Of a stretch of 18,020 nucleotides of DNA, positions 6,921-16,441 are shown in pieces (positions within the stretch are counted from its first letter, which is position 1; each line of letters opens with the position of its first letter). The translations under genes were made by a program, and so were the position numbers. The stretch is from Planctomycetaceae bacterium. GTDB lineage: Bacteria > Planctomycetota > Phycisphaerae > SM23-33. Where the stretch lies: positions 1 through 18,020 of the forward strand of contig JAJFVE010000147.1 in assembly GCA_021371965.1 (NCBI GenBank), read 5' to 3'. The notes under the pieces are model-generated. The model was not told where the DNA came from, did not search any database, and worked only from the letters and a program-made list of their open reading frames with translations.

Positions 6921-6946
6921 AAAAAAAGCCCGTCTCGTAGACGGGC
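6921..6946 (-). terminator. Rho-independent terminator after receiver gene
   Basis: GCCCGTCT, a three-base loop ACG and AGACGGGC form a perfect 8-bp stem on the minus strand. Seven T follow at 6927-6921. It terminates the receiver-domain gene that stops at 7016. Confidence 0.88.
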
Positions 6947-7468: not shown

Positions 7469-7635
7469 CCGCCCACCTGATTCAACTGAAGAGAATTTGG
7501 CAATTCGCGTTGTCATTCTGATTATTCAGACTTACACCCATCGCCGCTGCTTTTGATCCAGCGACCCAGCTATCGGCTATCAGGTAACGCCCCGAGCGAA
7601 AATGATTGCACCGGCTCCTGTTTTAAAAAAGCCCT

Positions 7636-8093
7636 GTTCGATGCGCTGTAAGCCGAGTTCTGTCGGCGAGGGGCGCCTGGGCCGGCGCGGCCGCCTGAAG
7701 ACCATTTATCTGGACCCGCCGTTGCCGACGAGCTCTGCCGCACGCGGGCGGACCCGCTTGCGGCACGCAGCCTACCCACGATCGCGTCCGCGGGGCGAGC
7801 CCCGCAGACGGGCCTGAGCCGCACCTTGCGATCGCTGCTTGGCTTTGCACCCGGTGGGGTTTGCCATGCCGCCGCTGTCGCCAGCGGCGCGGTGCGCTCT
7901 TACCGCACCATTTCACCCTTACCCTTCGACGGCCCTGACGGGCCGCTCGGGGCGGTATCTTTTCTGTGGCACTTTCCCTATCCTGCGCCGCCGAAACGGG
8001 CGGGACGGTGGGCGTTACCCACCACCGTGGCTCAGTGGTGCTCGGACTTTCCTCCCCAGCCTCGCGGCCGGAGCGGTCTTCCACGCATCGAAC
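7636..8093 (-). ncRNA. rnpB: RNase P RNA, bacterial type A
   Basis: Catalytic RNA of RNase P, which trims the 5' leader of pre-tRNAs. On the minus strand the near-universal GAGGAAAGTCCG is at 8054-8043. The P10-P11 core (AGGGTGAAATGGTGCGGTAA and GAGCGCACCG) is near 7920-7890. GTGGGTAGGCTG is near 7780, and the 3' core ACAGAACTCGGCTTAC is at 7663-7648. The ends are set by the P1 helix: GTTCGATGCG at 8093-8084 pairs perfectly with CGCATCGAAC at 7645-7636. At about 458 nt it is longer than the E. coli RNA (377 nt). A T6 run at 7630-7625 follows the 3' end and may aid termination. Any open frames across it are not genes. Confidence 0.95.
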
Positions 8094-8099
8094 ACGTTC

Positions 8100-8105
8100 A
8101 TTATA
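8100..8105 (-). promoter_or_regulatory. -10 box of rnpB
   Basis: A perfect TATAAT on the minus strand lies six bases before the 5' end of P1 at 8093. No good -35 is present. The -35 region instead overlaps a decayed REP-like palindrome (8112-8129). Confidence 0.65.
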
Positions 8106-8111
8106 CCGCGG

Positions 8112-8129
8112 CACGGCCGTCGCGGCCAT
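8112..8129 (+). repeat. REP-like palindrome, decayed copy
   Basis: CACGGCCG, loop TCG, then CGGCCAT. It is almost identical to the copy at 16332-16350 but has two arm mismatches. It lies across the -35 region of rnpB. Confidence 0.5.
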
Positions 8130-8302
8130 ACGCTGGACGGGCGAAGAGTAAACATCATCAAAGTCTGGATTGCCGAGCGGTTGGAGAAATCATCCACCTG
8201 ATTCTGCGCCATGGCAGGCGGGGCATTCCATTCTTGCGCAGATGTGGTACTCTACGGGTTCGCCGGGGCTGGGGGCGGTCGCTTCGGCGGGCAGGAAACA
8301 TC

Positions 8303-9820
8303 ATGATGCATCATACCCAGTGGTCCAGTCGTCGCATCGGGGCGGCCGGGGCGGTTCTTATCGCCGCCTCTGTGTTGTCGTGCGCTGCCGGCGGGGCGGC
8401 GGGGCAGGACTACATGACGGCCCTGAATTACCTTTCGGCGGCCTTGGCCGACAACGGCAGGACTCGCAGCATTCTTCCGGCGTTGCGGGCGGTTCGCGAC
8501 CCCGCGTTGCTACCGGTGTTTGCCGCCCTGAGCCGCTGCGGCGACCGCGAGCTGCGGGCCTTCGCCGTCGAGGCGTTGCCTGAGTGCGGCGGCGCCGAGG
8601 CGGGGGCGGCATTGAAGGAGCGGGTCTGGAACGACCCGAGCAACGAGATCCGCGCCGGGGCGCTGGTACACCTGAGCTCGCTGAAGATTCTGACCGATCA
8701 GGAGTTGCTCGACGTCATCGCCAAGGTCGGCGACGAGAACGTGCGGTCGCTGGCGGCCGACATGCTCACCCAGGGCGAGGGCCGGGCCAAGGCCATTCCG
8801 GCCTTGCGGTCGCTGGTCAAGTCGAAGGACCCGACCATCCGCACCGCGGCGCAGTTGGCGCTACTCAAGCTGGGGATCGAGGACTTCAAGGACGATCTGT
8901 TCAAGGCGGCGGCCGACGCCAACACCTCTGACGCGGTGGTGAGCCTGCTGGTTCGCAAGATCGGGCAGGACAAGATCGCCGCCGGTCTGGAACTGGCGCG
9001 ACAGGTGGCGCAGTCGGACCGCGCCGCCCCGGTGCGCGTCTCGGCGTATGCTGCCTTGGCTGAACTCTCCCCGCGCGACGTGCAGACGGTTCGCACGGCC
9101 CTGCAGGGCTCGGACATGACGATCTTCAAGATCTACCTGCTCAAGATCGTTGCCAAGAGCCCGCAGGCTCAGCAGCAGTTGAGGATACTGGCCTCGAACG
9201 ACAATCCGTCGGTGGCCGTGCTGGTGCGGCTGGAATTGGCGCGGCTGGACGGAGCGGCCCAGACCGGTGCGGCCGCGGCTGCGGCGCTCAAGCTGGGCCA
9301 CCCGATCGTTGTCGATTACGTCGTCGAGTGCGCCCGCAAGGACATGGCCGACCGAGGCCCGCTGGCCGAGGCGTACGTGGCGCCGCTGCTGGCGTACATT
9401 CGCAGCCTCGACGCCCCGGGCGCGACTCTCGGAGCCGACCACATCCGCGGGGCGATGGCCGCGACGCTATTGATTAATCTCGGCACGCCGGCGGCGACGG
9501 ATGGCCTGCGCGAGATCGCCGCCGGACGCTACGGCAGTGGCGTGCGGATGGTGGGGGCCGCCCTGATGCGCACGACCAACCCCGAATGCATCGGCTTGGC
9601 GCGGGTGCTGATTGCCAGCTCGTATCAGGAGGTGGTCTTCGACGGGGCGCTGACGCTGGCGCGGTTCAATCAGCCCCAGGCCCTGCCGGCGCTGCGAAAG
9701 ATTGTCGACAATCCCGACCCGGCCCAGCCCGGCGCTACGGCCATGGCCGCCTGGTACGTGCTGAAGCTCTCGGGCAAGGGTCCGGCGGCCGCCCGAGCGC
9801 TGGCCGAGCAGATCAAGTAG
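8303..9820 (+). CDS. Exported HEAT-repeat protein
   Basis: 505-residue protein with an N-terminal signal (hydrophobic AAGAVLIAASVLSCAAGG). The sequence VLSC could be a weak lipobox, so it may be a lipoprotein or a soluble periplasmic protein. The rest is a superhelix of HEAT/Armadillo-like repeats, seen as recurring LLPVFAALS, IPALRSLVKSKDPTIRTAA, ALLKLG, ALPALRKIVDN and AAWYVLKLSG units with Asp/Pro turns about every 30-40 residues. Such scaffolds bind other proteins; no catalytic motif is visible. The ATG at 8303 (an ATG doublet) follows AGGAAA, and the open frame further upstream merely crosses rnpB. A TGGTACTCT extended -10-like box is near 8245-8253. The stop codon TAG is the TAG of a REP-like GTAG motif. 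The gene is divergent from rnpB and convergent with the response regulator. Confidence 0.85.
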   Translation: MMHHTQWSSRRIGAAGAVLIAASVLSCAAGGAAGQDYMTALNYLSAALADNGRTRSILPALRAVRDPALLPVFAALSRCGDRELRAFAVEALPECGGAEAGAALKERVWNDPSNEIRAGALVHLSSLKILTDQELLDVIAKVGDENVRSLAADMLTQGEGRAKAIPALRSLVKSKDPTIRTAAQLALLKLGIEDFKDDLFKAAADANTSDAVVSLLVRKIGQDKIAAGLELARQVAQSDRAAPVRVSAYAALAELSPRDVQTVRTALQGSDMTIFKIYLLKIVAKSPQAQQQLRILASNDNPSVAVLVRLELARLDGAAQTGAAAAAALKLGHPIVVDYVVECARKDMADRGPLAEAYVAPLLAYIRSLDAPGATLGADHIRGAMAATLLINLGTPAATDGLREIAAGRYGSGVRMVGAALMRTTNPECIGLARVLIASSYQEVVFDGALTLARFNQPQALPALRKIVDNPDPAQPGATAMAAWYVLKLSGKGPAAARALAEQIK

Positions 9821-9863
9821 CACGGGCATCTTGCCCGTCAGTAGCATGGGCGTCCCGCCCATG
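9817..9863 (+). repeat. REP-like cluster 1, two palindromes
   Basis: Copy a is GTAG then ACGGGCA-TCT-TGCCCGT (arms 9822-9828 and 9832-9838). Copy b is GTAG then CATGGGCG-TCC-CGCCCATG (arms 9845-9852 and 9856-9863). Both face the same way and fill the whole gap between the convergent HEAT and response-regulator genes, ending on the base before the regulator stop. Confidence 0.75.
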
Positions 9864-10253
9864 TCACCGCGCGAGCAGGGCCTGGACCTTCGAGATCAGC
9901 ACGTCGAGGTCGACGGGTTTTTCCAGAAAATCCGCATGGGGCAGCAGCGCGCCCGGCGCGTGCTGGGCGCCGAAGCCCAGCGGTCCGCGCGGGTCGACGG
10001 CCGACAGGATCAGGATCGTCAGGCCCTGAAACTGTTCGTCGTCGGCCAGCGATTGCGCCAGGTCAAGGCCCTCGGCGCGGCGTTCGGGGAACATCACGTC
10101 CAGGATGAGCAGGTCGGGGCGTCGCAGGGCCAGGGTTTCGCGTGAGGCCTCGATGCTGGCGGCGATCCGGGTCTGGTGGCCCAGGGCCCGCATGACGGTT
10201 GCGACGGCTTGGGCGAAGTCCTCGTCATCATCGACGATCAGTATGTACGCCAT
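9864..10253 (-). CDS. Single-domain response regulator
   Basis: 129-residue canonical receiver domain without an output domain. The acidic cluster is Asp8-Asp9-Asp10 (LIVDDDEDF). The phospho-acceptor is Asp52 in LILDVMFP, the switch residue is Ser84 (ILILSAVD), and the conserved Lys is Lys112 in FLEKPVD. Between strands 3 and 4 the loop is longer than usual (PERRAEGLDLAQSLADDEQ). The start ATG at 10253 lies inside the last codons of the kinase gene, with GGAG and AGGA just upstream, so the two are co-transcribed and probably coupled. It most likely accepts phosphate from that kinase and acts by protein contact, or passes phosphate on in a relay, since no DNA-binding region is present. Confidence 0.92.
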   Translation of the reverse strand: MAYILIVDDDEDFAQAVATVMRALGHQTRIAASIEASRETLALRRPDLLILDVMFPERRAEGLDLAQSLADDEQFQGLTILILSAVDPRGPLGFGAQHAPGALLPHADFLEKPVDLDVLISKVQALLAR

Positions 10254-11689
10254 GGTCCTGCTCCGATCTCGTCGGCTGGCGGCGGGGGCTGGTCTGACGC
10301 CAGCGGCAGCGTGGCTTCAAAGGTTGTGCCCTCGCCTACGGCGCTGGAGACTTTCAGGCGGATGCCGTACATCGCCACGATGTCCCGCACGATCGCCAGG
10401 CCCAGGCCGGACGACTCGCGATTGTGCTGTGCGGCTGCGGCCGTGCGGTAGTACGGGTCGAAGATGCGCGACAGCTTGTCGGGCTCGATCCCGATGCCGC
10501 GGTCCTCAATGCAGGCGACGGCGCGGCCGCTCTCGTCGCGATGGCAACTGACGCGCACCTGCCCGCCGGGGCGCGAATAGAGCACGGCGTTGGTGACGAG
10601 GTTGCCGAAGAGCATCTTGAGATGCTCCTCGACGCCGCGGGCGGGCGAGGACTGCAGCGACTCGATCAGCGTCACGCCGCGTTCGGCCGCGCGGTCGCGC
10701 ACCTGCTGGCAGCACCAGGCCAGCACACCGGCCAGGTCCAGCTCGACCATTGCGGCCGCACGCTGGCTGAGCGACTGAAGATTGGCCAGCAGCAGCATGT
10801 CCTGGATCTCGTTGGCCAGGCGCCGCGAGCGGGCGTCGATGCGGCGCACGATCGGCATCGCCGCCTCGCTGAGCTCTCCGGCGTAGCCCTTGAGCAGCAA
10901 CTGCGTGTTGGCGTGGATAGCCGCGAAGGGCGCCTTGAGCTCGTGCGTGGTCTGCAGCATGTGACGCATGCGCTCCTGGCGGGCCTGCTCGAGTATGCGA
11001 TTGGCCGCCGCCAGCTCGCGGCTGCGGCGGCGGACCAGCTCCGAAAGCATCGACGCCAGATACCACACCACGATCATGAAGGCGATCATCAGGGCGAAAT
11101 TAACCGCCCCGAGCCCGCGCGGCGCCGGTTGAGCGAACACGCTTGCAGATGTCGCCAGGCCCGACTGCTCGGCTGCCACGCAGGCGATGAACATTCCCGC
11201 CGCCACGAGCGCCACCGCCAGGCTCTGCCGCCGCGAAAAGAAGATGCACGCCAGGATGATGTGAAACAGATACGCCCCGGCCGCGAACGTGCCCAGGCTG
11301 CCGATGAAATGCACCACGGCCGTCAGCACCAGAAGGTCGACGACGATCTGCGCCCAGAGCATGACCTGGGCGTTGGCGCGGGCGGCCCCGGCGCGTCGCG
11401 CCCAGCCGACGTAGCCGACGTTCGCCACCACCAGCGCCGCCGCCAGCACCCACGGCCACAGCATCGCCCCGCGCAGACCCAGCGAGTCGATGACGAGCGG
11501 GATAGCCGTAGCGGCGCCGGCGGCCGCCAGCACCGCCGCCACCAGCCAGCGGAAGCGGCAGAACATGATAACGTTTCGCCCGAGGATGTCCTGGGGCATG
11601 GCCGCGTCGCCGGCGTCGGCCTCCTCGCGGCGCGACGCGGGTGGCGCTAAGGGCAGTTCGTACGTCGCTCTGTCGGCGATACCGGCCAA
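10238..11689 (-). CDS. Membrane sensor histidine kinase
   Basis: 483-residue sensor kinase. After a hydrophilic 40-residue N-terminus come about six membrane helices (residues 46-68, 76-96, 108-130, 133-151, 155-173, 192-215) with short connections and no large periplasmic domain. The signal is therefore probably sensed in the membrane. A short coiled linker (SELVRRRSRELAAANRILEQ) leads to the HisKA domain with phospho-acceptor His249 (TTHELKAPF). The ATPase domain shows the N box (Asn363 and Asn367 in FGNLVTNAVLYS), G1 (IEDRGIGIE, Asp396), F box (IFDPYY) and G2 (SSGLGLAIV). The start is TTG at 11689, chosen because GAGGAG lies six bases upstream. The 3' end overlaps the response regulator by 16 bases. 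The six-helix sensor is not a family I can name. Confidence 0.92.
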   Translation of the reverse strand: MAGIADRATYELPLAPPASRREEADAGDAAMPQDILGRNVIMFCRFRWLVAAVLAAAGAATAIPLVIDSLGLRGAMLWPWVLAAALVVANVGYVGWARRAGAARANAQVMLWAQIVVDLLVLTAVVHFIGSLGTFAAGAYLFHIILACIFFSRRQSLAVALVAAGMFIACVAAEQSGLATSASVFAQPAPRGLGAVNFALMIAFMIVVWYLASMLSELVRRRSRELAAANRILEQARQERMRHMLQTTHELKAPFAAIHANTQLLLKGYAGELSEAAMPIVRRIDARSRRLANEIQDMLLLANLQSLSQRAAAMVELDLAGVLAWCCQQVRDRAAERGVTLIESLQSSPARGVEEHLKMLFGNLVTNAVLYSRPGGQVRVSCHRDESGRAVACIEDRGIGIEPDKLSRIFDPYYRTAAAAQHNRESSGLGLAIVRDIVAMYGIRLKVSSAVGEGTTFEATLPLASDQPPPPADEIGAGPWRTY

Positions 11690-11730
11690 GATCGCTCCTC
11701 GGGCGCAGCGTGGGGACTGTCGTCTTCATC

Positions 11731-11736
11731 ATTTTA
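11731..11736 (-). promoter_or_regulatory. Possible -10 box of kinase operon
   Basis: TAAAAT on the minus strand would start transcription near 11724, giving a leader of about 35 bases that includes the GAGGAG ribosome site. The -35 is weak (CTGCCG at 18 bases). Confidence 0.35.
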
Positions 11737-11803
11737 CCAACGTGTCGGCAGTGCCGGCAGCGTAATGCCTGAGTTACCGGGAGGAAAAGTCGCGGCGGCG
11801 CCA

Positions 11804-11832
11804 TTGTTCCGGCGGCGGCGGGACACTACGAT
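11804..11832 (+). promoter_or_regulatory. ispD promoter, leaderless arrangement
   Basis: TTGTTC (11804-11809), a 17-base spacer, then TACGAT (11827-11832). Seven bases later comes the ATG at 11840, so transcription should begin at or next to the start codon. Confidence 0.45.
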
Positions 11833-11839
11833 GTGGGCC

Positions 11840-12514
11840 ATGCGCAACGTGTCGGTGATCATTCCCGCGGCCGGGGCGTCCAAACGGTTCGGCGGGCCCG
11901 TCAGCAAGATCTTCGCTCCGCTGCAGGGGCGGGCGGTGCTGCTGCGCACGCTGGATGTCTTTGCGGCGCGGGCGGAGGTGCTGGAGATTCTCATGCCCGT
12001 CTCGCCCGACGACATGGCGGCCGTGCGCGAGCGCTTCGGCGGAGAGCTGGAGGGCCTGAATGTGCGTCTGATCGCCGGCGGGGCGATGCGCAGCGACTCG
12101 GTTCGGGCGGCCCTGATGGCGGTCGACGGGCGGGCCGAGCTGGTGTGCGTACACGATGCGGTGCGTCCGTGCGTGAGCCAGGCGTGCCTGGATGCGGTGC
12201 TCACCGAGGCGGCGCGGGGCGGGGCGGCGATTCTTGCCTGGCCGATCCACGGCACGGTCAAGCGGGTCGACGCCGAGGGCGTGATCGAGGCCACCGTCGA
12301 CCGCAGCGGTCTGTGGGAAGCCCAGACCCCGCAGGTGTTCCGCCTGGACATTCTTCGCCGCGCGTACGCCGCCGGCGCGACGGCCACCGACGACGCGCAC
12401 CTGGTGCAGCAGGCCGGGTTTGACGTTCGTGTCGTTCCCGGCGATGCCCGCAACATCAAGATCACGACGCCCGCCGATCTGGAGTTCGCCCAGATCGCGC
12501 TGGGTTCCATCTGA
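11840..12514 (+). CDS. ispD: 2-C-methyl-D-erythritol 4-phosphate cytidylyltransferase
   Basis: 224-residue cytosolic enzyme of the MEP isoprenoid pathway. It joins CTP and 2-C-methylerythritol 4-phosphate to form CDP-ME and pyrophosphate. The nucleotide-binding loop is IIPAAGASKRFGG at the very start, followed by the conserved Lys in SKIF. GGAMRSDSVRAAL binds CTP. VHDAVRP carries the metal-binding Asp, and TVKRVD holds the second conserved Lys. The family words TPQVFR and TDDAHLVQQAG follow, and KITTPADLEFA closes the fold as in other IspD proteins. The frame is open back to 11765. Two ATGs compete, 11831 and 11840. I prefer 11840 because it places the Rossmann strand where other IspD proteins have it and sits seven bases after a -10-like box. 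IspF is not adjacent. The gene is divergent from the kinase operon. Confidence 0.93.
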   Translation: MRNVSVIIPAAGASKRFGGPVSKIFAPLQGRAVLLRTLDVFAARAEVLEILMPVSPDDMAAVRERFGGELEGLNVRLIAGGAMRSDSVRAALMAVDGRAELVCVHDAVRPCVSQACLDAVLTEAARGGAAILAWPIHGTVKRVDAEGVIEATVDRSGLWEAQTPQVFRLDILRRAYAAGATATDDAHLVQQAGFDVRVVPGDARNIKITTPADLEFAQIALGSI

Positions 12515-12720
12515 GGCGCGTCCGCATCCCGTTTTGGCAGCGGTCGAGTCCCCATGGGATCTTCGGCTTGCTCGGCGGGTTGTTTCCCCGATTCTTTGAA
12601 CTTTCTTTATGCCATCGTATCCCCCCCATGACTGAGGCATTTCACGCCATCGAAGAATTATCGCCACTCAAATTTGCCTGCGGCCGATTCGTGGCCTATG
12701 TTGATTAGTGGAACACCCAG

Positions 12721-12818
12721 CCTCCCGACTCAAGGCCCGCGTGGCCATGTTCCTCGGGAGGATTCCTGGATAGTCGGCCTTGGCCGCTGTGGAGGGATCG
12801 TCCCTTCGGCCAAGGCCG
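12721..12818 (+). other. Two tandem stem-loops
   Basis: Stem 1: CCTCCCGA (12721-12728) pairs with TCGGGAGG (12754-12761), and GGCC-CGCGT-GGCC lies inside. Stem 2: CGGCCTTGGCCG (12775-12786) pairs with CGGCCAAGGCCG (12807-12818), with AGGGA-TCG-TCCCT nested inside. In addition GGAACA at 12710-12715 could pair with TGTTCC at 12748-12753, crossing stem 1. This may be a structured RNA or a transcription barrier; the strand is not determined. Confidence 0.4.
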
Positions 12819-12860
12819 CTTATTTGCGCCCCCGATGGCGGACTGTCTACATCTTCAACT

Positions 12861-12889
12861 TCGACCTTTGAACTTCCCGCAGGTACAAT
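12861..12889 (+). promoter_or_regulatory. Phosphodiesterase promoter, leaderless arrangement
   Basis: TCGACC (12861-12866), a 17-base spacer and TACAAT (12884-12889), then six bases to the ATG at 12896. No Shine-Dalgarno sequence is at normal distance. Confidence 0.5.
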
Positions 12890-12895
12890 CGCGAT

Positions 12896-13402
12896 ATGAA
12901 GATCGGAATCGTTTCGGACAGTCATGGCAAGAGCGTGCGGCTGCGGCGGGCGATGGAGATCTTCATCGCCGCCGACGCCGATGCCGTCGTCCATTGCGGC
13001 GACATCTGCTCGCTCGACGACGTCGAGCTGCTGGCGATGGGGCCTTCCGGGCGGCCGCAACCGCATCTCGTCGCAGGCAACATGGACCGCAACCGCCCGG
13101 CGCTGCTGGCCGCGGCCCGGCATTGGAACGTGCGGTATCATGACGAAGTGATTGAGGTCCCCATCGGCGAGGGCGAGTATCTCGCGGCCGTTCACGGCCA
13201 CATCCCCTCGCTACTGTCGGACCTGATCGACGACGAGCAGTTTCCGTACGTCTGTCACGGCCACACGCACGACACGCGCGACGAGCGCGTGGGCATCACG
13301 CGGGTCATCAACCCCGGCGCGCTGTACGACGCGAGGCCGCTGACGGTGGCCATCCTGGACACCGACACTGACGAGTTGACATTTCACGAAGTGGAAGATT
13401 AG
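12896..13402 (+). CDS. YfcE/MJ0936-type metallophosphodiesterase
   Basis: 168-residue cytosolic calcineurin-like phosphoesterase with a two-metal active site. All ligand motifs are present in order: SDSHG (Asp8, His10), HCGDI (Asp36), GNMD (Asn62), VHGH (His100), and HGHTH (His121, His123). INPGA closes the fold. The length and motif spacing fit the YfcE/MJ0936 group, whose members cleave phosphodiesters in vitro with broad substrates; the physiological substrate is usually unknown. The start ATG is at the very beginning of the fold (MKIGIVSDSH), so no upstream extension is likely. It is probably transcribed alone from a promoter that may give a leaderless mRNA. It converges on pyk, with a 104-base gap that contains a second copy of the TTTGCCACAGAG core. 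Confidence 0.9.
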   Translation: MKIGIVSDSHGKSVRLRRAMEIFIAADADAVVHCGDICSLDDVELLAMGPSGRPQPHLVAGNMDRNRPALLAAARHWNVRYHDEVIEVPIGEGEYLAAVHGHIPSLLSDLIDDEQFPYVCHGHTHDTRDERVGITRVINPGALYDARPLTVAILDTDTDELTFHEVED

Positions 13403-13409
13403 CAGAAGC

Positions 13410-13421
13410 TTTGCCACAGAG
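13410..13421. repeat. Short copy of the GCCACAGAG repeat core
   Basis: TTTGCCACAGAG, identical to 6049-6060, lies eight bases after the phosphodiesterase stop. The match ends there, so this is either a tiny remnant or chance. Confidence 0.3.
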
Positions 13422-13506
13422 ATCTTGGCGCGGCCTCAGGGATATGGCGGCTGGGAAACGGCTGCCATGGCACCCGAGGTCTCGCACCGGCCGGAGTCTT
13501 CACCGG

Positions 13507-14928
13507 CTACTGCACTGTGTGCACCACCAGCGTGTTGGTCAGGCCGGGGATGCCGAAGGGTTGGCCCGAGATCACCACCAGCTTGTCGCCCTTGGCGGCC
13601 ACGCCCAGGCGCAGGGCGAACTGTGTCGCCGTCGCCAGCACCTCGTCGGTGCTTGTCAGCATCGGCGTCTGGAGGCCCAGCACGCCGTAGTACAGGCACA
13701 TCCGCCGCACGCTGTCGGCCTTGGGCGACAGGCCCAGGATCGGGCACGACGGGCGGTGCTTGGAGAACATCTGGGCGGTCTTGCCGGTCATGGTGAAGAC
13801 GGCGATGGCCGCGACGGGTTCGCGGGCGGTGATGTCGCGGATCGAGTCGGCCAGGGCGGCGGTCGTCGCCGATGTGTGGCGCGGCGGAATCTTCAGGTCC
13901 CGCAGCGTGCGGTCGTGATAGGACTGCATCGAGCTGACGATAGAGTTCATCATCGTCACGGCCTCGATGGGGTACTTGCCCACGGCCGTCTCGCCCGAGA
14001 GCATCACCGCGTCGGCGTGGTCGAGCACGGCGTTGGCCACGTCCGAGACCTCTGCCCTCGTGGGGGTGGCGTTTTCGGTCATCGACTCGAGCATCTGCGT
14101 GGCGATGATGCACGGCTTGGCCTGGATCGCGCAGTGGTGGGCGATGGTCTTCTGCGCCACGGGCACTGCCGGCAGGTCCATCTCGACGCCCAGGTCGCCG
14201 CGGGCGACCATCACCGCGTCGGCGGCCGCGACGATGTCCTGGATGGCGTCCATCGCCTGGGGCTTCTCGATCTTGGCGACGATGGGCAGCGGCCGCCCGG
14301 CGGCGGCCAGCACGCCTCGCAGGTCCTCGATATCCTGGGGTTTTCGCACGAACGACTGGGCGACGTAGTCGAAGTCGTGGGCCGCGATCCAGGCCGCGTC
14401 GGCGTGATCCTTCTCGGTCAGCGACGACAACGTCAGCGTCGTGTGTGGGAGGTTGACGCCCTTGCCGCAGGCGAGTACGCCCCCGCGCTGGACGGTGCAG
14501 ACGATCTGGTCCTTGTCGCCGGCCTCGGTCACCTGCAGGCGGATCTTGCCGTCGTCGAGCAGGATGGTCTGCCCGGGTCGGGCCTGGTCGACCAGTTCGG
14601 CCAGCGTCGTCGAGATGTGCTGCGCGTCGCCGATGATCGGCTGGCGCTGGATGATGAGGCTCTGCCCCTCGCCCAGCAGCACGCTGCCGCCGGTGATCTG
14701 GCCCACGCGGATCTTGGGCCCGCACAGGTCGCCCAGCACCGCCAGCGGACGGCCGATCTCCCGCTCGATCTTGCGGATGGCCGTCAGCACCTCGAGCCGC
14801 TGCTCGTTGGCCCCGTGCGAGAAATTGATCCGGAACACGTCCACGCCCGCCTCGACCAGCCGCCGTAGCGTGGCCTCGGACGCACTGGCCGGCCCGATCG
14901 TCGCGATGATCTTTGTGCGTATCAGCAT
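13507..14928 (-). CDS. pyk: Pyruvate kinase
   Basis: 473-residue glycolytic enzyme converting phosphoenolpyruvate and ADP to pyruvate and ATP, of normal length for bacterial pyruvate kinase. The start TKIIATIGPAS is diagnostic. Substrate-site residues are Arg33, Asn35 and Ser37 (VFRINFSHG), then Asp67 and Lys72 (GDLCGPKIR). The signature IVAKIEKPQAMD supplies catalytic Lys219 and metal ligand Glu221. VARGDLGVE gives Asp245. ATQMLESM, DVANAVLD and MLSGETAVGKYP complete the A domain. The C-terminal domain is full length and ends in LVVHTVQ. An in-frame ATG at 14937 overlaps the -10-like box, so the next ATG at 14928 is preferred. No other glycolytic gene is nearby. A REP-like cluster lies directly upstream. 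Confidence 0.96.
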   Translation of the reverse strand: MLIRTKIIATIGPASASEATLRRLVEAGVDVFRINFSHGANEQRLEVLTAIRKIEREIGRPLAVLGDLCGPKIRVGQITGGSVLLGEGQSLIIQRQPIIGDAQHISTTLAELVDQARPGQTILLDDGKIRLQVTEAGDKDQIVCTVQRGGVLACGKGVNLPHTTLTLSSLTEKDHADAAWIAAHDFDYVAQSFVRKPQDIEDLRGVLAAAGRPLPIVAKIEKPQAMDAIQDIVAAADAVMVARGDLGVEMDLPAVPVAQKTIAHHCAIQAKPCIIATQMLESMTENATPTRAEVSDVANAVLDHADAVMLSGETAVGKYPIEAVTMMNSIVSSMQSYHDRTLRDLKIPPRHTSATTAALADSIRDITAREPVAAIAVFTMTGKTAQMFSKHRPSCPILGLSPKADSVRRMCLYYGVLGLQTPMLTSTDEVLATATQFALRLGVAAKGDKLVVISGQPFGIPGLTNTLVVHTVQ

Positions 14929-14935
14929 GCAGGCC

Positions 14936-14962
14936 ATTCTATGGAAAGCGCCCGCCGGGCAA
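14936..14962 (-). promoter_or_regulatory. pyk promoter, leaderless arrangement
   Basis: TAGAAT (14941-14936) lies seven bases before the ATG at 14928. A possible -35, TTGCCC (14962-14957), is 15 bases upstream, which is short. Confidence 0.4.
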
Positions 14963-14977
14963 CAGCGCCAACTGAAA

Positions 14978-15073
14978 GTAGCATGGGCGGGACGCCCATG
15001 TCCCTGATCCTTGAAAGGTCGGAGAGCATGGGCGAGACGCCCATGCCACTCACGGGCGGGACGCCCGTGCTAC
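14978..15073. repeat. REP-like cluster 2, three palindromes
   Basis: Copy c: arms CATGGGCG 14982-14989 and CGCCCATG 14993-15000, loop GGA, preceded by GTAG. Copy d: arms 15027-15034 and 15038-15045, loop AGA, followed by CCAC. Copy e: CACGGGCG 15051-15058 and CGCCCGTG 15062-15069, loop GGA, followed by CTAC. The cluster occupies the divergent gap between pyk and the first beta-helix gene. Confidence 0.75.
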
Positions 15074-15121
15074 ATCAGACTATGATATAAAGACGCCTTC
15101 AGCGGAAATCGAGGAGCACTC

Positions 15122-16327
15122 ATGGTCGCCTTGAGAACCATCGCGTGGATCGCCGCGGCTTGCTGCCTCGCGGCTGGAATGGCCATCGCCCAGCAGGATC
15201 AGCCGCAGGAGCAGGCCCCGCCGCCGCGCACGCTGAAGGTCGGGCCCGGCGAAAAGTATGCCAAGCCCTCTGCCGCCATCGCCGCAGCTAATAAGGGCGA
15301 CACCGTCGAGATTGCCCCAGGAACATACCAGAACGACTGGTGCTCCGTCCGCCGCGACCGGCTGACGCTGCGCGGCCTGGTAGACGCCGAAGGTCGCAAG
15401 CCGCTGCTCAAGAGCTCCGGCAGCATCAATAACGGCAAGGCCATCTGGGTCGTCAGCGGCCACAACGTGACGGTCGAGAACATCGACTTCGCCGGCGCCC
15501 GCGTGAAGGATCACAACGGGGCGGGCATCCGCGCCGAAGGGCGCAACCTCACCGTGCGCGGCTGCAAGTTCAGCGACTGCGAGAACGGCATCCTCGGCGG
15601 CGGCAGCGACCCGCGCAGCGAGATGCTCATCGAGCACTGCGAGTTTGCCGGCTGTGGGCTGCGCGGGCAGTCGCACAATCTTTATATATCCGCCATCGGC
15701 AAGCTGACGTTCCGCTACAACTACACGCACCGCGCCAAGGAGGGGCACCTGCTCAAGTCGCGGGCGCGAGAAAACCACATCCTCTATAACCGCATCGCCG
15801 AGGAGGAGACCGGCTCGGGCAGCTATGAGATCAACCTGCCCAACGGCGGCAAGGCTGTAATCATGGGCAACGTGATTCACCAGGGGCCCAAGTCGCAGAA
15901 CTCCAGCATGCTCGCCTACGGCGAGGAGGGCATGAAGTACCAGGCCAATTCCGTATACGTAATAAACAACACGTTTATCAACGAGCTGGGCAAGGGCATC
16001 TTCGTGAACATTCGATCCCGCAGTGTCGAGCCGCCGGTGCTGATCGCCAACAACATCTTCGTCGGCCGCGGCGAACTGTGCAGTTATCCCAAAGCCGAAC
16101 TGAAATCCAACGTCACCGATGACCCCCAGTTCGTCGATCGCGCCACGTGGAACCTGCACGTCAAGGCCGACTCGCCCTGCGTCAACAACGGCGCTCAACT
16201 GCCAGCCGCCGACGGCGTGAGCTTCGTCCCAGCGTTCCAGTACGTTCACCCCTGCTCGATGGCCAAACGCACTGACGACGGCAAGACCGTCGGCGCGTAC
16301 GAAGTGGCACGGACGTCTCGCCCGTGA
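15122..16327 (+). CDS. Secreted right-handed parallel beta-helix protein
   Basis: 401-residue exported protein. Residues 1-23 are a Sec signal peptide (IAWIAAACCLAAGMAIA, cleaved before QQDQ), followed by a short Gln/Pro linker. The start of the helix, LKVGPGEKYAKPSAAIAAAN and DTVEIAPGTY, is typical of beta-helix polysaccharide-active proteins. Successive coils are visible as NVTVENIDFAG, NLTVRGCKFSDCENGI, EMLIEHCEFAGC, KLTFRYNYTHR, NHILYNRIAEE, AVIMGNVIHQG and SVYVINNTFIN. It may be a lyase or a glycan-binding protein; no catalytic set could be assigned. GAGGAG lies five bases before the ATG. The final residues (VARTSRP) and the TGA stop are encoded by a REP-like palindrome, so the original C-terminus may have been replaced. 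It is followed by the second beta-helix gene on the same strand. Confidence 0.85.
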   Translation: MVALRTIAWIAAACCLAAGMAIAQQDQPQEQAPPPRTLKVGPGEKYAKPSAAIAAANKGDTVEIAPGTYQNDWCSVRRDRLTLRGLVDAEGRKPLLKSSGSINNGKAIWVVSGHNVTVENIDFAGARVKDHNGAGIRAEGRNLTVRGCKFSDCENGILGGGSDPRSEMLIEHCEFAGCGLRGQSHNLYISAIGKLTFRYNYTHRAKEGHLLKSRARENHILYNRIAEEETGSGSYEINLPNGGKAVIMGNVIHQGPKSQNSSMLAYGEEGMKYQANSVYVINNTFINELGKGIFVNIRSRSVEPPVLIANNIFVGRGELCSYPKAELKSNVTDDPQFVDRATWNLHVKADSPCVNNGAQLPAADGVSFVPAFQYVHPCSMAKRTDDGKTVGAYEVARTSRP

Positions 16328-16441
16328 GTCGCACGGCCGTCCCGGCCATGCAAGAAACAAGAGCATGGCCGAGACGGCCATGCCACACCCGGAGCATGGG
16401 CGAGACGCCCATGCTACTCACGGGCAAGATGCCCGTGCTAC
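16304..16441. repeat. REP-like cluster 3, five palindromes
   Basis: Copy j: GTGG then CACGGACG-TCT-CGCCCGTG (16308-16326, one mismatch), containing the upstream stop codon. Copy f: CACGGCCG-TCC-CGGCCATG (16332-16350, one mismatch). Copy g: CATGGCCG-AGA-CGGCCATG (16364-16382). Copy h: CATGGGCG-AGA-CGCCCATG (16395-16413), flanked by GGAG and CTAC. Copy i: CACGGGCA-AGA-TGCCCGTG (16419-16437), followed by CTAC. Together they fill the space between the two beta-helix genes almost completely. Confidence 0.75.

What the first reader, a model, noticed from the sequence alone, without database searches (positions are those of the whole stretch)
8112..16441. REP-like palindrome family, eleven copies with compensated arms
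Copies share the form CAYGGSCR-NNN-YGSCCRTG with a constant three-base loop. Perfect copies differ from each other at paired positions: CATGGGCG/CGCCCATG, CACGGGCG/CGCCCGTG, CATGGCCG/CGGCCATG, CACGGGCA/TGCCCGTG. Both arms change together, so pairing appears to be maintained. The loop is TCN on one strand (AGA or GGA when reversed), which gives orientation. In most copies GTAG, GTGG or GGAG precedes the element on the TCN-loop strand; copy c is an exception. REP elements mobilised by RAYT (TnpA-REP, Y1 HUH) transposases carry such a GTAG-like tetranucleotide beside an imperfect palindrome. The link to RAYT is inference, as no RAYT gene is visible. Clusters sit only at gene borders.
Basis: partly seen in the sequence, partly recalled or inferred. 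Interest (0 to 1): 0.7.

Follow-up and report, generated by a model that had tools for sequence, protein, structure and literature searches.

The report
Planctomycete REP family with gene-nested transposase
The window's small DNA hairpins are scattered copies of what looks like a mobile repeat family, and in related bacteria the transposase gene bordered by such hairpins sits in frame inside the coding sequence of other genes, such as a tRNA synthetase.

Summary
In detail: eleven copies of one 19-nt hairpin (8-bp stem, TCN loop), seven perfect, with covarying arms and usually a GTAG/GTGG tail; shuffles give at most one. The window's genome is not held, but 27 of 35 relatives carry the exact consensus (up to 468 copies; reversed-pattern control 0-3). 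They are REP elements, and the RAYT inference is supported: in 9 of 35 related genomes a RAYT (HUH/Y1, H-H-Y intact) is bordered on both sides by palindromes of this family.

The unexpected part lies outside the window. In all nine genomes the REP-RAYT element is in frame, without a stop, with another gene: ValRS (eight; seven at one site) or EtfB (the window's nearest relative). In 392 Planctomycetota genomes, 21 of the 36 best matches are nested (FabZ, AlaRS, R-M methylases and others), 12 stand alone, 3 contain stops. Trees show nesting to be clade-specific, with several host changes. An AlphaFold model gives a FabZ fold with a TnpA_REP-like domain looped out between disordered linkers. Ten searches of open-licence PMC papers gave no description of this. 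In-frame nesting is shown at DNA level; translation as one protein, transposase activity and a protective benefit are inferred.

The parts
8108..8130 (+). REP copy a, decayed (tail GCGG, last stem base mismatched), about 20 bp upstream of the 5' end of rnpB
   Evidence: absent from the corresponding rnpB-HEAT gap of G020
9817..9839 (+). REP copy b1, GTAG tail; its TAG (9818-9820) is the stop codon of the HEAT-repeat ORF; one end base mismatched
9841..9863 (+). REP copy b2, GTAG tail, perfect stem, head-to-tail with b1 (24-bp register)
14982..15000 (-).
15027..15049 (-). REP copy d, GTGG tail, perfect stem
15051..15073 (-). REP copy e, GTAG tail, perfect stem, head-to-tail with d (24-bp register)
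16304..16326 (+). REP copy f, GTGG tail, one stem mismatch; encodes the C-terminal residues of the beta-helix ORF (stop codon 16325-16327)
16328..16350 (+). REP copy g, GTCG tail, one stem pair unmatched, head-to-tail with f (24-bp register)
16364..16386 (-). REP copy h, GTGG tail, perfect stem; the only one of the 11 that passes a loose terminator-like scan
16395..16417 (-). REP copy i, GTAG tail, perfect stem
16419..16441 (-). REP copy j, GTAG tail, perfect stem, head-to-tail with i (24-bp register)
7633..8092 (-). RNase P RNA (rnpB), neighbour of copy a
   Evidence: Rfam RF00010, 202 bits
7826..9820 (+). HEAT-repeat protein ORF (mechanically listed start; the part that aligns with G020 begins at 8302), ends in the GTAG of copy b1
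   Evidence: PF13646
13507..14937 (-). pyruvate kinase gene, divergent from the beta-helix gene across copies c-e; used to find relatives
   Evidence: 90% identical in G020
15122..16327 (+). right-handed beta-helix protein ORF whose end is REP-encoded
   Evidence: PF13229

Best explanation
The eleven elements are one family of REP elements: non-autonomous mobile palindromes recognised by a RAYT (TnpA_REP-type HUH/Y1 transposase). Single-stranded REP DNA would fold into the 8-bp hairpin with its TCN loop; the RAYT would read the tail GTAG/GTGG, stem and loop, cut beside it and paste copies elsewhere, mostly at gene borders, often as head-to-tail pairs in a 24-bp register. Shown here: the family, its copy numbers in relatives, its covarying arms, its orientation with the tail, and a RAYT with intact catalytic residues bordered on both sides by palindromes of the family in nine related genomes. 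Inferred from published work on E. coli, S. maltophilia and Marinomonas RAYTs: the cutting and pasting. In this lineage the RAYT is not an ordinary separate gene: REP-RAYT-REP is inserted in frame in a host coding sequence (ValRS, EtfB; in sister clades FabZ, AlaRS and others). The REP ends carry no stop codon in the frames used, so the host gene is read through, the REPs become linkers and the RAYT an internal domain. The likeliest consequence (inferred, untested) is that the RAYT is expressed with its host enzyme and is shielded from frameshift, nonsense and careless deletion, because these would also destroy the host gene.
For: Family. RAYT link: 9 of 9 close RAYTs bordered on both sides; H-H-Y in 126 of 126 proteins; only PDB match by sequence is 4er8, TnpA_REP, E 6e-9. 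Nesting: hosts by Pfam and TIGR00422; 1,287 proteins of 723-2,300 aa carry the domain; 21 of the 36 best phylum matches nested; all 20 outside G001 have a host domain; 62 of 85 ValRS fusions have no Met between ValRS and RAYT; KMSKS kept in 82 of 85; FabZ fold and TnpA_REP fold in one predicted chain; nesting clade-specific. Controls: 29 DDE_Tnp_1 matches in the same 35 genomes, longest open frame 603 aa; the other ten Y1 matches of G001 lie in frames of 123-225 aa. The two GTGG-tailed repeats translated are open in all six frames.
Against: No transposition is shown: REP absence in G020 could also be loss, and only the decayed copy a has both flanks otherwise unchanged. The window holds no RAYT and its genome is not held. 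Five relatives have 40-81 consensus copies but no close RAYT in their assemblies, and G012, G016 and G017 have a close RAYT but only 18-19 consensus copies. By the published guide model GTGG should go with cutting at CC or CA, while CT follows 16 of 25 such copies. ValRS and RAYT distances correlate only moderately (r 0.40). In G017 only the upstream host half is on the contig with the RAYT; in G010 the host frame breaks further on. No protein-level evidence for a fusion. The AlphaFold model has pTM 0.50, so the arrangement of its domains is uncertain.
Confidence: 0.85

Rival explanations
1. The hairpins are transcription terminators or RNA stability elements that spread by duplication with no transposase; the RAYT association is incidental.
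For: They sit at gene borders, some at the 3' end of an ORF, and stem-loops there could act on RNA. One of the 11 (16364) passes a terminator-like scan.
Against: The other 10 do not pass that scan, which found 6 sites against 3.3 in shuffles over the region. Copies lie also in the divergent pyk/beta-helix gap and upstream of rnpB, and in frame inside a glycosyltransferase gene of G020. An oriented tail is not expected of a terminator. Copy number tracks the RAYT and the RAYT is bordered by palindromes of the family in 9 of 9.
Confidence: 0.06
2. The nested RAYT is a host-domesticated domain: the ValRS (or FabZ) uses the HUH domain for its own job, and the REPs are by-products.
For: One site in ValRS shared by seven of the nine genomes and by 85 of 126 examined proteins; mean identity 63.0% for RAYT and 69.6% for ValRS, so the RAYT evolves only somewhat faster.
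Against: Related RAYTs sit in unrelated enzymes (ValRS, EtfB, FabZ, AlaRS, NadE, MetH, DnaE, IspG, methylases), and a tree of 44 needs 14 changes among 12 labels ('alone' and a second ValRS site among them). REP borders are present in every one of the nine family genomes.
Confidence: 0.12
3. The RAYT is an overlapping nested gene translated from its own start, and the host protein is dead or is made from a second copy.
For: 19 of 32 nested loci have an ATG within 50 codons upstream of the domain. G010's ValRS frame is broken further downstream.
Against: 62 of 85 ValRS fusions have no Met in the linker, though GTG or TTG starts are possible; two nested loci have no ATG, GTG or TTG in 50 codons. 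A start behind a Shine-Dalgarno-like motif is found in 6 of 32 nested loci, but also in only 3 of 12 lone ones, so that measure says little. No second full-length, RAYT-free ValRS is listed in the eight ValRS genomes (the list is cut at weak matches). KMSKS is kept in 82 of 85.
Confidence: 0.15
4. The nested frames are artefacts of metagenome assembly or binning.
For: The named relatives are MAGs; G010 shows a frame break, and the ValRS genes of G017 and G035 are split over contigs.
Against: The same ValRS site recurs in seven genomes and in many database proteins from several sources, one FabZ site in ten genomes (nine with both halves read); the junctions carry inverted REP-like hairpins (in one search for most but not all loci).
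Confidence: 0.02

Closest known systems
GTAG-tagged REPs (Di Nocera, De Gregorio and Rocco 2013, PMC3733652; abstract, first part of section 4, sections 15 and 16, and search passages read)
   Same: GTAG-type tail (GTGG in most O. terrae GTAG-20 elements), 6-13-bp stem, short loop, complementary stem changes, mostly intergenic, TAG of the tail used as stop codon, some REPs inside genes (tRNA synthetases among them); Planctomycetes included (R. baltica).
   Different: Neither CATGGGCG nor CACGGGCG occurs in the paper's text (its Figure 1 is not held). [quoted passage not shown] In the sections read, RAYTs are described as flanked by REPs, not as inserts inside another gene's frame.
S. maltophilia REPtron, group 3 TnpA_REP (PMC8266576, passages read)
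   Same: 23-nt unit: GTAG, 8-bp perfect stem, 3-nt loop; the purified transposase cuts single-stranded REP at CT.
   Different: Sequence, and the GTGG variant; no cutting tested here; transposase nested in host genes.
E. coli TnpA_REP (PDB 4er8)
   Different: The PDB chain is a 165-residue protein; E. coli REPs have a bulge (PMC8266576 passage).
Rickettsia palindromic elements (RPE), via PMC3733652 passages
   Same: Palindromic repeats inserted in frame in genes that probably stay functional.
   Different: No transposase is mentioned for them there; here a whole transposase is carried through the frame.
Inteins and intron-borne homing endonucleases (recalled; no call made on them)
   Same: Mobile enzyme carried inside a conserved host gene at a tolerated site.
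   Different: No splicing domain was reported by Pfam in the proteins scanned, so the insert seems to stay in the protein.

Membership tests
GTAG-type REP family | Short palindrome, 6-13-bp stem, short loop | tested here: met
   8-bp stem, 3-nt loop, 11 copies
GTAG-type REP family | GTAG-like tetranucleotide at one end, giving orientation | tested here: met
   38 of 41 orientable matches in G020 stretches have GTGG or GTAG on the TCN side; 8 of 11 in the window
GTAG-type REP family | High copy number in the genome | tested here: met
   Relatives only: 337, 341, 468 and 250 exact copies in G001, G006, G020 and G035; the window's own genome is not held
GTAG-type REP family | Complementary changes in the stem | tested here: met
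   Covariation score 0.203 against 0.096 and 16 doubly changed cells against 5.8, each 0 of 500 shuffles; the number of doubly changed pairs (3) does not stand out (170 of 500)
RAYT (REP-associated Y1 HUH transposase) | H-x-H motif and catalytic Tyr | tested here: met
   126 of 126 proteins; invariant in the 9 family RAYTs
RAYT (REP-associated Y1 HUH transposase) | Gene bordered by REPs of the genome's own family | tested here: met
   9 of 9 on both sides, exact consensus on both sides in 5, two or three letters off in 4; that variant is frequent in three of those four genomes
RAYT (REP-associated Y1 HUH transposase) | TnpA_REP fold | tested here: met
RAYT (REP-associated Y1 HUH transposase) | Binds and cuts single-stranded REP DNA | not testable with these tools
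   Needs purified protein
REPIN (paired inverted REPs as the replicating unit; definition recalled) | Two REPs in inverted orientation as the usual unit | tested here: inconclusive
   Only 5 of 26 close neighbour pairs in G020 are inverted, 20 are head-to-tail, 1 undecided; the window has both kinds
Intein | Self-splicing (Hint) domain | tested here: not met
   None reported by Pfam in the nested proteins scanned

The most novel reading that the evidence does not exclude
Some RAYT clades live an intein-like life without splicing: REP ends that are free of stops let REP-RAYT-REP land in frame in conserved genes, the transposase is made as an internal domain of an indispensable enzyme (ValRS, FabZ, AlaRS, EtfB and others), and the host's need for that enzyme protects the transposase from decay, so that it persists by descent for long periods, moves now and then from one reading frame to another, and feeds the genome-wide REP population from there.
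Probability: 0.5. Interest if true: 0.86.

Novelty: new variant of a known kind. Interest (0 to 1): 0.72.

Why it matters
RAYTs are described as single-copy, vertically inherited genes that do not copy themselves and whose exact function is unknown, and the long persistence of their REP populations is treated as a problem to be explained (PMC8049555, passages). A RAYT built into the reading frame of an indispensable enzyme would explain persistence in a simple way and makes it testable: loss of the frame is loss of the enzyme. It would also mean that surveys may have missed such proteins: one survey of Y1 transposases states that it discarded a few unexpectedly long proteins as gene fusions or annotation errors (PMC6006769, passage), and the nine FabZ-RAYT proteins that carry an NCBI name are all named 'transposase'. 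If the fusion is translated, it further shows a mobile element that is translation-transparent without splicing.

Tried and rejected
Tried without result: the window's own genome (not held); Rfam (only RNase P RNA); tRNAs (none). Literature: ten searches gave no paper that I could see to describe a RAYT nested in another gene; I saw listings and passages or sections of four papers only (PMC3733652, PMC6006769, PMC8266576, PMC8049555), the library holds open-licence PMC papers, and one paper I recalled as relevant is not held.

Considered and rejected: a terminator family (1 of 11 passes the scan; in-frame and divergent positions); an intein (no Hint domain reported); one domesticated ValRS (many hosts); assembly error (recurrence). 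The guide-sequence rule of IS200/IS605 was checked against the 3' neighbours: CT or CA follows the stem in 28 of 43 tailed copies, but GTGG does not go with CC (1 of 25; CA in 6), so the rule is not supported here, and tandem duplication inflates the count.

Weak points of the counts: admits only proteins of 0.55-1.75 times the query's length, so it cannot say what share of RAYTs is nested; the family scan and the phylum scan can, but at most 8 candidates a genome were scored and a nested gene was first taken as an open frame of 355 aa or more, which Pfam then confirmed. The tree holds all 9 close family RAYTs, the 32 unbroken matches other than G001 among the first 36 rows (20 nested, 12 alone) and 3 weaker nested ones; the 3 rows with stops and the other weaker rows were left out. 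The tree is a sample biased towards nested proteins (30 ValRS, 14 FabZ and 30 lone ones, mostly drawn at random, plus the other hosts). In one search copies with odd loops were left out, and before the coding match was dropped (26 of 27 distinct sequences kept); six matches could not be oriented, and its 47 matches include the coding one in pyk. The host counts were read off the Pfam column by eye. The 126 proteins are the 120 listed and six translated here, one protein being in both. L228 reads into a run of N after the RAYT, so its downstream FabZ half is not seen; in L227 the frame is cut by the stretch's end; in L162 (G003) the LeuRS part before the RAYT is not on the contig.


Full report
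1. The observation. The window holds eleven copies of a 19-nt palindrome CAYGGSCR-NNN-YGSCCRTG in four places: 8112; 9821 and 9845; 14982, 15027 and 15051; 16308, 16332, 16364, 16395 and 16419. Sixty dinucleotide shuffles gave at most one match at the same tolerance. A twelfth match (13981) is coding sequence of pyruvate kinase. Seven copies are perfect. The loop is TCN on one strand, and on that strand GTAG, GTGG or GTCG precedes the stem in 9 of 11 copies. Arms covary (paired fraction observed against expected if arms were independent 0.87/0.53, 0.92/0.71 and 0.98/0.76 for the three variable pairs, which still includes the coding match). Two copies touch ORF ends: the TAG of one GTAG is a stop codon, another encodes VARTSRP before the stop. 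Both habits are described for GTAG REPs in PMC3733652 (section 15 read).

2. Where it comes from. No genome of the window is held. Window 7625-14946 and G020 are collinear in six aligned blocks of 78-88% DNA identity.

3. The family in relatives. The exact consensus occurs in 27 of 35 genomes of that family, up to 468 times (G020), the reversed pattern 0-3 times. In 405,179 bases of G020 there are 47 matches with at most one mismatch, one of them the coding match in pyk (reversed sequence: 5); of 41 that can be oriented, 25 have GTGG and 13 GTAG on the TCN side; close neighbours are head-to-tail in 20 of 26 pairs, in registers of 24 and 30-34 bp. Beside genes that G020 shares, none of six window copies (a; b1, b2; c, d, e) is present in G020, but only copy a has both flanks otherwise unchanged: between HEAT and kinase genes G020 also lacks the response-regulator gene, and upstream of pyk the beta-helix gene is not found in the stretch. 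The five copies at 16308-16437 could not be tested. So turnover is shown, insertion is not.

4. The transposase. A Y1 domain in G001 lies between two pairs of these palindromes in inverted order, tails outward. Searching the 35 family genomes with it gave nine close matches (51-100% identity over nearly the whole protein) and weaker ones of 43% or less. All nine are bordered on both sides by palindromes of the family: exact consensus copies on both sides in G001, G006, G012, G019 and G020, copies two or three letters off in G010, G016, G017 and G035. The profile's only PDB match is TnpA_REP 4er8. Genomes with this RAYT have more copies (median 115, n 9, against 3, n 26; p 1.9e-4), with exceptions both ways: five genomes without it have 40-81 copies, and three with it have 18-19. 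The stem variant CGCGGGC...GCCCGCG, which borders the RAYT in G010, G017 and G035, has 8 or more copies in 8 of the 9 RAYT genomes and in 0 of 26 others.

5. The surprise: nesting. In all nine genomes the RAYT lies in one open frame with another gene. In seven (G006, G010, G012, G016, G017, G019, G035) the host is ValRS, interrupted at position about 204-211 of the TIGR00422 model; in G001 it is ValRS near position 718. In G020 the host is EtfB, and its ValRS is free of it. Reservations: in G017 the contig ends just after the RAYT and the rest of ValRS is on another contig; in G035 the gene is split further on; in G010 the frame breaks further on. No second full-length, RAYT-free ValRS is listed in these eight genomes (list cut at weak matches). 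A second, distant RAYT clade with other linkers sits in LeuRS of G017 and G003 a little before the editing-domain TTRPDT motif (in G003 the upstream half is not on the contig), as the ValRS insert sits a little before TTRPET. Eighteen database proteins match that clade's region: by Pfam 9 LeuRS, 3 ValRS, 3 DUF1156, 1 PurH, 2 without domains.

6. How common. 1,287 database proteins of 723-2,300 aa match the first clade's domain; among the 120 listed I count 86 class I tRNA synthetases (mostly ValRS), 8 NadE, 7 MetH, 7 N6/N4 DNA methylases, 5 AlaRS, 2 IspG, 2 with PF20465-type methylase domains, 1 DnaE, 1 DUF1156 and 1 with Y1 alone. In the less biased scan of 392 Planctomycetota genomes (56 with a match at E 1e-30), of the 36 best matches 21 lie in open frames of 355 aa or more, 12 stand alone (200-279 aa) and 3 contain stops; weaker matches are mostly in frames of 150-350 aa. 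All 20 nested ones outside G001 contain a recognisable host domain: 10 FabZ-like, 3 AlaRS, 3 R-M methylases of the Eco57I/MmeI kind, and one each of N6/N4 methylase, DUF1156, helicase and FAD/FMN oxidoreductase; weaker matches fetched besides sit in two Eco57I methylases and PurH. REP-like hairpins flank most of these loci, nested and lone, on one or both sides, but none reached my threshold in L218, L227, L230 and L250. Controls: 29 DDE_Tnp_1 matches in the 35 family genomes have open frames of 220-603 aa; G001's other ten Y1 matches have 123-225 aa.

8. History. On a tree of 44 genome-sampled RAYTs the ValRS/EtfB clade is nested in 10 of 10, the FabZ/AlaRS clade in 13 of 14, a third clade stands alone in 9 of 9, and the last three-row and single branches are mixed; twelve labels need 14 changes (least possible 11; shuffled mean 28.1) (bootstrap/SH-aLRT of the three clades 91/93, 98/94 and 92/75). 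A larger, biased sample of 118 gives 19 changes (least 15) against 75.5 shuffled. So nesting is clustered by clade and seems inherited, yet the host gene has changed several times.

9. Mechanism. Published biochemistry (PMC8266576, passages) shows that RAYTs cut single-stranded REP DNA at CT or CA, and that the S. maltophilia unit has the very anatomy seen here (GTAG + 8-bp stem + 3-nt loop, 23 nt). That this RAYT does so is inference. The two GTGG-tailed repeats translated are open in all six frames, the two GTAG-tailed ones have a stop in one; I infer that this openness lets the element pass through reading frames. The shielding idea is my inference and untested.

10. Verdict. The window's repeats are a new family of a known kind (REP/RAYT). 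The nested RAYT is a new variant, for which I found no report in the searches listed. It rests on DNA from many assemblies, not on protein or activity data.

Noticed in passing
L165:9325-10416 (+), G020: REP copies without RAYT lie in frame inside a glycosyltransferase family 9 gene (REP-encoded CMGGTPMPHSRSMGETPMPH near the N-terminus).
   Followed up: partly
window 9864-10253 (-): The response-regulator gene beside REP pair b is absent from the corresponding HEAT-kinase gap of G020, so the REPs mark a spot of gene gain or loss.
   Followed up: no
L163:191-3982 (-) and L162:3001-5904 (-): A second RAYT clade, with other linkers (GTGFQPV, LQTCAT), is nested in LeuRS a little before the editing-domain TTRPDT motif, much like the ValRS site; 18 database proteins match it.
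   Followed up: partly
L230, L233, L234 (all G417): One genome has three nested RAYTs, in a DUF1156 protein and two Eco57I-type R-M genes.
   Followed up: no
P0127-P0162: The nine FabZ-RAYT proteins here that carry an NCBI name are all called 'transposase', hiding a fatty-acid synthesis gene.
   Followed up: no
window 6928-6946: A perfect GCCCGTCT-CGT-AGACGGGC hairpin preceded by an A-run looks like an intrinsic terminator on the minus strand; not part of the REP family.
   Followed up: no
G010:C145:11186-14930: The ValRS with nested RAYT continues in another frame near 14055: a real frameshift or an assembly error.
   Followed up: no
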